Shown one piece after another: positions 26,869 to 28,268 of a stretch of 64,000 nt of DNA. Below the pieces are notes generated by a model that made no database searches, had not been told where the DNA came from, and saw nothing but the letters and a program-made list of their open reading frames with translations. A program made the position numbers and the translations under genes. Numbering within the stretch: the first letter of the stretch is position 1; each line of letters starts with the position of its first letter. Origin of the DNA: Lachnospiraceae bacterium (GTDB taxonomy: Bacteria > Bacillota > Clostridia > Lachnospirales > Lachnospiraceae); assembly GCA_017623295.1 (NCBI GenBank), contig JAGAPK010000060.1, forward strand, positions 1-64,000, written 5' to 3'.

Positions 26869-26908
26869 TTATTTTGATAAATTTTCTTCCTTTAATAATA
26901 TTATGAAG

Positions 26909-26954
26909 AGATATCTGGAATGGCGTGAAATGCGCTGTTTCAGGTATCTTTTTA
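26909..26954 (+). terminator. Terminator of glgP
   Basis: A 17-bp stem with G-T pairs joins AGATATCTGGAATGGCG and CGCTGTTTCAGGTATCT, then a T-run. Confidence 0.88.
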
Positions 26955-26983: not shown

Positions 26984-27012
26984 TTGACAAGTAGGAAAAG
27001 TAGGAGTATTAT
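26984..27012 (+). promoter_or_regulatory. Promoter of the cysK transcript with GTAGG repeats
   Basis: TTGACA (26984-26989), 17 bases, TATTAT (27007-27012). The spacer contains the direct repeat GTAGG-AAAA-GTAGG, and an inverted CCTAC follows at about 27028. Binding of a sulfur regulator of the CymR/Rrf2 type here is plausible but unproven. Confidence 0.75.
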
Positions 27013-27065
27013 CAATTCATACAAAACCTACAAGAACAATATGAAATAAGAAAGGAGCAACACAA

Positions 27066-27149
27066 ATGAAAAAGAAAAATGGAATTTTATGTAAAGTGGC
27101 AAAGGATGGAAAGAATGTCATGTGTTGCTGCTGTATGATGATAAAATGA
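27066..27149 (+). CDS. Cys-codon leader peptide upstream of cysK, 27 residues
   Basis: Short frame with a strong ribosome site (AAGAAAGGAG, 7 bases before ATG). The peptide is Lys-rich at first, then ends [10 protein letters not shown]: four consecutive cysteine codons followed by two methionine codons, three codons before the stop. A fifth Cys is residue 9. Thirty-eight bases separate its stop from cysK. The frame overlaps no other gene. The arrangement is that of an amino-acid-sensing leader peptide where ribosome stalling at Cys codons alters expression of the downstream cysteine synthase. No terminator hairpin lies between, so coupling or mRNA stability is more likely than classic attenuation. 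Confidence 0.75.
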
Positions 27150-27187
27150 AACAGAAAATAATAGCAAATTTAAAGGAGATTAAAATC

Positions 27188-28129
27188 ATGGCAAATATTA
27201 AAAAAAGCGCAACAGAGTTAATTGGAAAAACACCTTTATTAGAGGTTACAAATTATGAGAAAGCAAATCAGATTACAGATGCAACTATTTTAGTAAAACT
27301 GGAATACTTAAATCCGGCAGGTTCCGTTAAGGATCGTATTGCACTGAATATGATTGAGGATGCAGAGAAAAAAGGTGTTTTGAAACCAGGAGCAACTATT
27401 ATTGAGCCGACTTCCGGAAATACCGGAATTGGTCTTGCAGCCGTAGCAGCAGCAAAAGGCTATCGTGCAATCTTGACACTTCCGGAGACAATGAGTGTGG
27501 AGAGAAGAAAACTTTTGCAGGCATATGGAGCAGAGCTGGTGCTGACTGAAGGCGCAAAAGGAATGAAAGGAGCTATTGCTAAGGCAGAAGAAATTAAGGA
27601 AGCAACACCTGGCTCAGTCATCTTAGGACAGTTCGTAAATCCAGCCAATCCGGAAATTCATAAAGCAACAACAGGACCTGAAATCTGGCAGGATACAGAT
27701 GGTAAAGTAGATATTTTTGTGGCAGGTGTTGGTACTGGCGGAACCGTTACTGGTGTCGGTGAGTATCTGAAAGAACAAAATCCAAATGTTAAGATTGTAG
27801 CAGTAGAACCGGAAAGCAGCCCTGTTTTATCAGGCGGACAGCCGGGAGCTCATAAAATCCAGGGTATCGGAGCTGGTTTTGTACCGGATGTATTAAATAC
27901 AGGTATTTATGATGAAATTATCAAAGTATCCAATGAAGATGCTTTTGCGGCAGGCAGAGAGATTGCGGTAAGAGAAGGTGTATTAGTCGGAATTTCTTCC
28001 GGTGCAGCACTTCATGCAGCAACGCAGCTTGCAAAGCGTCCTGAAAATAAAGGAAAAACGATTGTAGCGCTTTTGCCGGATTCCGGTGACCGTTATTTAT
28101 CTACCCCATTATTTTCCATTGAGTCTTAA
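27188..28129 (+). CDS. cysK: Cysteine synthase (O-acetylserine sulfhydrylase)
   Basis: PLP enzyme that makes cysteine from O-acetylserine and sulfide. The 313 residues carry the cofactor lysine K48 in [12 protein letters not shown], the substrate loop [12 protein letters not shown], the phosphate-binding [13 protein letters not shown] and the C-terminal [12 protein letters not shown]. The ATG at 27188 follows AAAGGAGAT; an upstream GTG frame would cut across the leader peptide. It stands between the Cys-rich leader and the methionine importer genes, forming a sulfur amino acid region. Confidence 0.96.
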
Positions 28130-28163: not shown

Positions 28164-28268
28164 TTGACAAGAATGGCAATTTGTAATAAAGTGGACACGA
28201 TTAAGATGTAAGGAAAGAGCCTAATTTGCGCAGGTGCATGATGCTCATGTGCCTGCATTTTGTTTTAG
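28164..28268 (+). promoter_or_regulatory. Promoter and terminator leader of metNIQ
   Basis: TTGACA (28164-28169), 17 bases, TAAAGT (28187-28192). About 30 bases after the predicted start comes a 12-bp terminator-like hairpin, GCAGGTGCATGA/TCATGTGCCTGC (28230-28256), with a T-rich tail. The leader is too short for a SAM-I riboswitch and lacks T-box sequences. A TTG at 28226 opens a frame with Cys and Met codons that stays in frame with metN. Upstream, TCCTA/TAGGA (around 28136-28155) forms an inverted repeat. Confidence 0.6.

What the first reader, a model, noticed from the sequence alone, without database searches (positions are those of the whole stretch)
27066..27149. Leader peptide with four consecutive Cys codons upstream of cysK
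A 27-residue frame with a strong ribosome site ends [10 protein letters not shown] and lies 38 bases before cysteine synthase. Consecutive codons for the pathway product are the mark of an amino-acid-sensing leader. Cys-codon leaders are described for actinobacteria; I know of no well-described case in Clostridia. The lack of a terminator or of an anti-ribosome-site sequence suggests a different mechanism, such as translational coupling or RNA decay.
Basis: partly seen in the sequence, partly recalled or inferred. Interest (0 to 1): 0.75.

Follow-up and report, generated by a model that had tools for sequence, protein, structure and literature searches.

The report
Cysteine-codon leader before cysteine synthase gene
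A short reading frame with four cysteine codons in a row sits just before a cysteine-making gene; it resembles a cysteine-sensing switch that recurs across one family of gut bacteria, but this copy lacks the usual off-switch, so how it acts, or whether it still acts, is open.

Summary
Confirmed: window 27066-27149 encodes [27 protein letters not shown] behind a strong ribosome site, 38 nt before cysK, under its own promoter-like site; none of 5000 shuffles gives such a frame.

It is not isolated. Ribosome-site-preceded Cys-cluster frames occur upstream of cysK in 15 of 187 loci against 0.55 expected. In other genera many are classical transcription attenuators: Cys codons, a hairpin just after them, a terminator. 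The window's own genome carries one (98 bits) before a sulfur-related operon.

The window copy has no terminator and does not match that model. In its genus the leader was seen in 4 of 77 genomes and not in the nearest relative. In those four the Cys run is predicted to pair with the leader's own ribosome site.

Best reading: a Cys-tRNA-sensing leader, a terminator-less variant of a Cys-leader family found neither in Rfam nor in the papers searched. Sensing rests on comparison; how a stall reaches cysK is inferred, and a relic is a serious rival, since a Met-codon leader before metN has decayed in this very window.

The parts
26984..27012 (+). sigma-70-like promoter TTGACA-17-TATTAT
   Evidence: consensus scan, 11 of 12; similar arrangement by eye upstream of cysK in many genus loci
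27019..27047 (+). degenerate palindromic operator-like site ATACAAAACCTAC...TATGAAAT near the expected transcription start
   Evidence: by eye: the same site, often with a GTAGGAAAT right half, in many genus loci; likeness to Rrf2-type (CymR/IscR) operators is recalled, not tested
27051..27057 (+). leader ribosome-binding site AAAGGAG
   Evidence: sequence; GAAAGGAGCA in all four genus carriers
27066..27149 (+). 27-codon leader [30 protein letters not shown]
27123..27134 (+). four consecutive Cys codons (proposed stall site)
27056..27064 (+). 5' arm of the helix predicted to close the leader ribosome site (AGCAACACA); bases 27067-27069 also pair, with 27118-27120
   Evidence: folds and duplex tests
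27121..27129 (+). 3' arm of that helix, in the Cys run (TGTGTTGCT)
   Evidence: duplex -18.1 kcal/mol, p=0.001 against shuffled ribosome sites
27172..27178 (+). cysK ribosome-binding site, predicted mostly open
   Evidence: mean pairing probability 0.27
27188..28129 (+). cysK, cysteine synthase A
   Evidence: TIGR01139, 464.6 bits

Best explanation
The frame is a translated cysteine-sensing leader peptide of cysK, a terminator-less variant of a Cys-leader family spread through the Lachnospiraceae. Charged tRNA-Cys is read at the four Cys codons (inferred). When cysteine is scarce the ribosome stalls at 27123-27134; that holds open a helix in which the Cys run otherwise closes the leader's own ribosome site, so more ribosomes load and queue on the 5' end. 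I think it most likely that this raises cysK output by shielding the message from 5' decay. When cysteine is plentiful the ribosome runs off, the helix closes the leader ribosome site, and the bare 5' end is degraded sooner. Shown by sequence: the frame, its ribosome site, the Cys run, the gene context, related attenuators elsewhere, the predicted helix. Inferred: translation, stalling, the effect on message life.
For: Chance excluded (0 of 5000 shuffles). Cys-cluster leaders upstream of cysK: 15 of 187 loci against 0.55 +/- 0.6 (maximum 2) in 20 shuffles and 1 on the opposite strand. In other genera: terminator by a strict rule in 18 of 21, hairpin just after the Cys codons in 18 of 18 analysed, 94.7% of cells paired against at most 46.7% when slid. 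The same genome has a full attenuator (98 bits, not among the model's training rows; genes). The four genus leaders share ribosome site and VMCC; ATG-to-VMCC distances are 51, 63, 78, 99 nt, found with a pattern that does not look at frame. Ribosome-site:Cys-run pairing in 4 of 4 (duplex -18.1, -19.8, -16.5, -19.4 kcal/mol; p 0.001, 0.001, 0.004, 0.020; z 2.5, 2.3, 2.8, 1.3). RNase J, which the decay step would need, is encoded (644 bits).
Against: Seen in only 4 of 77 genus genomes; the nearest relative (96% CysK identity) has none, so it is dispensable. Carriers are two pairs that do not group on a cysK tree. No terminator and no closed cysK ribosome site, so the output step has no direct sequence support. 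In L006 pairing with the run is weaker (0.35); ten to thirteen of 192-312 windows pair as well or better with the ribosome site (windows overlapping the run were not separated out). The four are one family, not four independent cases, and the differences in the 5' arm are one-sided. A Met-codon leader before metN, kept in L003, has been lost in this window with its terminator left behind, so leaders do decay here. No expression data.
Confidence: 0.45

Rival explanations
1. Relic: the frame descends from a full Cys attenuator whose terminator was lost; it may still be translated but no longer controls cysK.
For: No terminator in the four genus carriers between leader and cysK (for the scan; folds); R1 does not match the window leader; a full attenuator exists elsewhere in the genome; leader not seen in most of the genus nor in the nearest relative; decayed leaders are seen elsewhere: L288 keeps a terminator without a Cys run, and the window's own metN has promoter-like site and terminator but no Met leader.
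Against: Ribosome site, VMCC and their pairing are kept in four species whose middle parts have diverged strongly.
Confidence: 0.3
2. Translational coupling: ribosomes that end at the leader stop reinitiate at cysK, so leader translation sets cysK translation.
For: Leader stop is 38 nt before cysK and overlaps an ATG (27146) in frame with cysK.
Against: cysK has its own mostly open ribosome site; distances in the carriers are 38, 100, 137, 53 nt, whereas the abstract of PMC4833913 places a weak Firmicutes peak at 15-16 nt; the ATG after the stop is followed one codon later by a stop in L003 and is missing in L006; a stall would lower cysK when cysteine is scarce, the wrong sign.
Confidence: 0.08
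3. Rho-dependent attenuation: a stalled ribosome hides a Rho loading site.
For: Rho is encoded in this genome, on the same contig; PMC1262725 (passages) offers this as one possibility for terminator-less Cys leaders of Actinobacteria.
Against: 27019-27187 holds 15 C and 33 G; no 78-nt window has more C than G, so no recognisable Rho site.
Confidence: 0.07
4. The product is a working Cys-rich micropeptide (for example metal or thiol binding), not a sensor.
For: Cys-rich C-terminus kept in four species.
Against: Length (27-41 aa) and sequence vary freely outside the ends; the frames sit upstream of cysK or, in other genera, other uptake and sulfur-related genes; related leaders carry attenuator RNA structure.
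Confidence: 0.05

Closest known systems
Polycysteine leader ORFs of mycobacteria (Canestrari et al. 2020; seen only as cited in passages of PMC9031893 and PMC13236596; the original is not held) and the earlier prediction in Mycobacterium, P. acnes and B. longum (PMC1262725, passages)
   Same: Run of Cys codons near the end of a short frame before a cysteine-related gene, no obvious terminator.
   Different: Mycobacterial frames are leaderless and reported to act by translation attenuation; here there is a strong ribosome site, the cysK ribosome site is predicted mostly open, and it is the leader's own site that the Cys run closes.
Ribosome-mediated amino-acid transcription attenuators (trp/his/leu type)
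   Same: Leader frame with a run of the pathway amino acid; in the related Lachnospiraceae leaders also hairpin, candidate antiterminator and terminator.
   Different: The window copy has no terminator. In Firmicutes such leaders are reported for His in bacilli (PMC2965389, passages) and Leu in S. aureus, with predictions for Lactococcus and Streptococcus cited there (PMC5794164, passages).
uORFC-8-2 motif before cysS of Rhodobacterales (PMC8632094, passages)
   Same: Tandem Cys codons in a short frame before a cysteine-related gene, with a terminator.
   Different: Two Cys codons, Alphaproteobacteria, a tRNA synthetase gene; homology was not tested.
Cys attenuators of Lachnospiraceae found here (alignment A2, model R1)
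   Same: Cys-run leader before cysK in the same bacterial family, similar ribosome-site region by eye.
   Different: Many carry a tail like AVCMNTVYFSYALCT, a post-Cys hairpin and a terminator; the window leader has none of these.

Membership tests
Ribosome-mediated transcription attenuator (trp type) | short ORF with ribosome site before the gene | tested here: met
Ribosome-mediated transcription attenuator (trp type) | run of codons for the pathway product | tested here: met
   four Cys codons before cysK
Ribosome-mediated transcription attenuator (trp type) | intrinsic terminator between leader and gene | tested here: not met
   none found between 27150 and 27187
Ribosome-mediated transcription attenuator (trp type) | alternative antiterminator | tested here: not met
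   no terminator to compete with; R1 gives only chance-level matches in the window
Ribosome-mediated transcription attenuator (trp type) | stalling and readthrough when the amino acid is scarce | not testable with these tools
   needs expression data
Translation attenuator (mycobacterial polycysteine type) | downstream ribosome site closed by RNA pairing | tested here: not met
   cysK site mean pairing probability 0.27 in the window, 0.16 in L003; partly paired in L004 (0.43) and L006 (0.51)
Translation attenuator (mycobacterial polycysteine type) | leaderless start of the short ORF | tested here: not met
   ribosome site AAAGGAG present; promoter-like -10 ends at 27012, 54 nt before the ATG
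T-box riboswitch | match to RF00230 | tested here: not met
   no T-box in the window at gathering score; the genome has 11 T-box matches, 6 over cut-off
Lachnospiraceae Cys attenuator (this work) | match to covariance model R1 (post-Cys hairpin plus terminator) | tested here: not met
   best window match 15.7 bits on the opposite strand, E 0.65, chance level
Lachnospiraceae Cys attenuator (this work) | common descent of the leader | tested here: inconclusive
   ribosome-site regions look alike by eye, but the strings are short and no tree of leaders was made

The most novel reading that the evidence does not exclude
A self-closing leader: the Cys codons are at once the sensor and the lid. A pioneer ribosome loads before the Cys run is transcribed; if it stalls on the run the leader's ribosome site stays open and the message is kept, if it passes the run folds back and shuts that site. 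This would be amino-acid control without a terminator, without closing the gene's own ribosome site and without tight transcription-translation coupling, derived from a family-wide Cys attenuator.
Probability: 0.2. Interest if true: 0.78.

Novelty: new variant of a known kind. Interest (0 to 1): 0.6.

Why it matters
In Firmicutes most tRNA-synthetase genes are said to be under T-boxes and none under classical attenuation (PMC1262725, passages), and PMC2965389 (passages) treats its His leaders in bacilli as the first amino-acid leader peptides outside Proteobacteria and Actinobacteria. A Cys attenuator before cysK, uptake genes, a family 2A encapsulin operon and nitrogenase-like genes would be a cysteine regulon read by ribosomes in a major group of gut anaerobes, found also in named species (Lacrimispora, [Clostridium] aerotolerans), and so a direct test of whether transcription and translation are coupled there. 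The window copy shows what is left, or what replaces it, when the terminator is gone.

Tried and rejected
Profile search with four leader peptides in 397 family genomes missed the window's own leader, so its negative result says nothing; nine of its matches were screened by translation and four looked at with their surroundings; none was a leader before a gene. Of 12 genus matches to a VMCC pattern, 8 were judged by eye as chance. A second TGYTGYTGYTGYATG in the genome is antisense to what looks like ATP-synthase genes (by eye). Rfam: no leader family in the window or in 8 loci (one tRNA and one chance match). R1 on the window: chance matches; a 29-bit match in L003 is on the minus strand of that locus at 1202-1332. 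L003 is stored in the opposite sense, and the match lies on the far side of cysK from the leader, about where the Met leader and terminator are, so it is probably that terminator. Four weak R1 matches looked at (L291-L294, E 0.0057-0.0116) are chance, while L290 (E 0.0022) has a real leader; the rest of the weak end of that list was not checked one by one.

Results against the attenuator reading or limits of it: the antiterminator duplex clearly beats its shuffles (5 or fewer of 200) in only 7 of 18, mean z -1.8; two of 20 rows (L239, L260) fell out of that test because an A separates hairpin and U run; the number of pairs with a change on both sides (58 of 500 shuffles reach it) and of further pair types (147 of 500) is not above shuffles. 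In 27 leaders the ribosome-site pairing has mean z 1.2, with 8 at or below zero. Six of the 16 strong R1 places are rows the model was built from. The genome-collection pattern fixed part of the sequence, so its hits are no independent sample; 10 of 29 stretches were not leaders, and one of the 19 (L242) has no clear ribosome site. L202 was left out of A2 as too different. Of 363 family genomes with cysK only the best-listed part was fetched; 5 of 192 fetched loci dropped out, and two of those five (L092 and L213, the cysK loci of G278 and G364) do carry leaders. The cysK tree used 36 chosen genus loci and lost three, the nearest relative L002 among them. I did not file the window leader as a member of the attenuator family, as it fails the model.

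Full report
What is there. Window 27066-27149 holds a 27-codon frame ending [10 protein letters not shown] with the ribosome site AAAGGAG at 27051-27057; 38 nt later cysK starts. A promoter-like TTGACA-17-TATTAT lies at 26984-27012, and a strong terminator-like hairpin at 26906-26952 follows the previous gene, a glycogen phosphorylase by eye, so the leader probably heads its own transcript. metN-, metI- and metQ-like genes follow cysK (MetI over its cut-off, MetN and MetQ under theirs), but a promoter-like site and a terminator-like hairpin lie between cysK and metN, so they need not share the transcript. In 5000 dinucleotide shuffles of 27019-27187 no ribosome-site-preceded short frame had four consecutive Cys.

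In the genus. cysK was found in 93 of 98 relatives. The VMCC pattern occurs in 12 of 77 genus genomes, but in only 4 is it a leader before cysK: the window genome and G030, G057, G046; the scan added none in the genus loci it covered. The peptides are [90 protein letters not shown] and MRARNGSRDLCREKRMHTYKDSKCGICMKERNEVMCCFMCF. The ribosome site and VMCC are kept, the middle differs, and the stretch from stop to cysK is free in length (38, 100, 137, 53 nt). The nearest relative, G024 (96% CysK identity), lacks the leader: there a GGAGGAGCAATAAAATT stretch leads straight into cysK. On a cysK DNA tree the carriers form two pairs that do not group (one gene, 33 of 36 chosen genus loci used, G024 not among them), which fits repeated loss, transfer or noise.

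In the family. A scan of 187 of 192 fetched cysK loci for ribosome-site-preceded frames with Cys clusters gave 15 loci, against a mean of 0.55 (maximum 2) in 20 shuffles and 1 on the opposite strand. Four are the genus leaders; the other eleven are in other genera, some with a tail like QTVCMNTVYFSYALCT. A pattern from five of them found 29 stretches in the named genome collection; 19 are such leaders, in Lacrimispora celerecrescens, L. algidixylanolytica, [Clostridium] aerotolerans (two), Clostridium sp. 12(A), a Hungatella MAG and other MAGs; 16 of the 19 are upstream of cysK, named by its N-terminus. One has six Cys codons in a row (L261). Some of the 19 are the same genomes as.

They look like attenuators. 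In 18 of 21 leaders a strict rule finds a hairpin plus U run starting 18-63 nt after the leader stop; the three failures have an A before the U run (L239, L260) or an interrupted U run (L240). A hairpin CTGTAT...ATACGG follows the Cys codons within a few bases in 18 of 18 analysed, where a ribosome stalled on them would cover its 5' arm. On alignment A2 hairpin plus terminator give 94.7% paired cells and a covariation score of 0.316 against 0.225 in shuffles, at most 46.7% and 0.144 when slid; two of the five measures are not above shuffles. An antiterminator between the leader end and the terminator 5' arm has mean z -1.8 but is individually clear in only 7 of 18. The order of parts is that of the trp attenuator.

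The same genome has one. Model R1 matches 33 of 397 family genomes at E<=0.1, 16 places in 15 genomes at E<=0.001; 6 of the 16 are rows of the model's own alignment. Of the 16, 14 have a recognisable Cys-cluster leader, one a weaker one (L284, MCMCF), one only the terminator half (L288). One is G000:C66:25355-25473, 98 bits, in the window's own genome and not a row of the model: leader MKNYKVSTICKSFVCCCKAVCMNTVYFSYALCT, then DUF2292, a JAB-domain protease, a MoaD-MoeB fusion, a family 2A encapsulin shell (488 bits, over cut-off), a cysteine desulfurase of the encapsulin cargo type (775 bits, just under its cut-off of 800) and a serine acetyltransferase of the EpsC/CysE kind, cut by the end of my stretch. 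So this organism very probably reads cysteine with a Cys-codon leader. Elsewhere such leaders precede MetQ- and MetN-like uptake genes (by eye), family 3 solute-binding proteins, an amino-acid permease, and operons with NifB-like and nitrogenase-like genes.

What differs in the window. R1 gives only chance-level matches there; no terminator was found, the cysK ribosome site is mostly open, and the 5' region is poor in C, so no Rho site is visible. Instead AGCAACACA in the leader's ribosome site (27056-27064) is the exact complement of TGTGTTGCT in the Cys run (27121-27129). The pairing is predicted in all four genus carriers (duplex -18.1, -19.8, -16.5, -19.4 kcal/mol; p 0.001, 0.001, 0.004, 0.020 against shuffled ribosome sites), with mean probability of pairing with the run 0.70, 0.73, 0.81, 0.35. 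Between 10 and 13 windows of 192-312 in each region pair as well or better; windows overlapping the run were not separated out. The differences AACAC, AATGC, AGCAC in the 5' arm keep pairing only through G-U, weak evidence. In many of the attenuator leaders the ribosome site pairs with the stretch after the Cys run instead; over 27 leaders the mean z is 1.2, with 8 at or below zero.

A decayed neighbour. In 5 of 42 genus loci with the cysK end in view, a ribosome-site-preceded Met-rich frame (for example MKNNIMMTMNMMMCSNTMQMCSVIDVFHVYHKA) follows cysK and is itself followed by a terminator; in L003 and L016 metN comes next. The window keeps a closely similar promoter-like site (28164-28192) and terminator (28230-28256, -17.4 kcal/mol) but not the Met frame. 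Leaders thus do decay in this lineage, which strengthens the relic rival.

Mechanism. Sensing of charged tRNA-Cys by stalling is the natural reading. For the output, RNase J is encoded, and a ribosome stalled near the 5' end is known to protect messages in Bacillus (recalled), so message protection is my first choice, with the ribosome-site lid as its gate. Rho is present too but has no visible site. Reinitiation has the wrong sign and no fixed distance. A relic is the strongest rival.

Literature. Searches of the held library showed no report of a Cys leader in Clostridia or Lachnospiraceae among the listed papers; the library holds only open-licence papers and long lists were capped. Closest reports: PMC1262725 (passages), PMC2965389 (passages), PMC5794164 (passages), PMC8632094 (passages), PMC9031893 and PMC13236596 (passages), PMC4833913 (abstract and outline). 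Rfam gave no matching family.

Noticed in passing
L003, L011, L016, L104, L117 (after cysK, before metN where seen); window 28164-28256: A Met-codon leader (for example MKNNIMMTMNMMMCSNTMQMCSVIDVFHVYHKA) with ribosome site and a terminator about 52-55 nt after its stop lies between cysK and metNIQ in 5 of 42 genus loci examined: a possible methionine-sensing attenuator. The window keeps the promoter-like site and terminator but has lost the Met frame.
   Followed up: partly
L305 (window genome, contig C66, 19500-26500), minus strand: A full Cys attenuator heads an operon of DUF2292, JAB-domain protease, MoaD-MoeB fusion, family 2A encapsulin shell, cargo-type cysteine desulfurase and CysE-like acetyltransferase: possible cysteine control of a sulfur-related nanocompartment; one paper search for it listed nothing relevant.
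   Followed up: partly
L306, L252 (family-tested); L311, L312 (by eye): Cys leaders stand before operons with NifB-like radical SAM or nitrogenase-component-1-like genes, perhaps enzymes that free sulfur from organic compounds (recalled idea, untested).
   Followed up: partly
window 27019-27047 and the same place in many genus loci: A recurring palindromic site (ATACNAAACCTAC...GTAGGAAAT) near the cysK transcription start; it looks like an Rrf2-type operator (recalled) and is degenerate on its right side in the window.
   Followed up: no
L288 (G435), upstream of cysK: A Cys attenuator with terminator and leader end but no Cys run, apparently a decayed copy.
   Followed up: no
window 27146-27149: The leader stop overlaps an ATG in frame with cysK that would add 14 residues to CysK; not kept in L003 or L006, so probably chance.
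   Followed up: partly
L308 (G170), L307 (G183), L309 (G121): Cys leaders, or a Cys-poor form in L307, stand before metQ/metN-type transporter genes (by eye), whose window homologues follow cysK; a hint that this transporter may carry cysteine or cystine.
   Followed up: no
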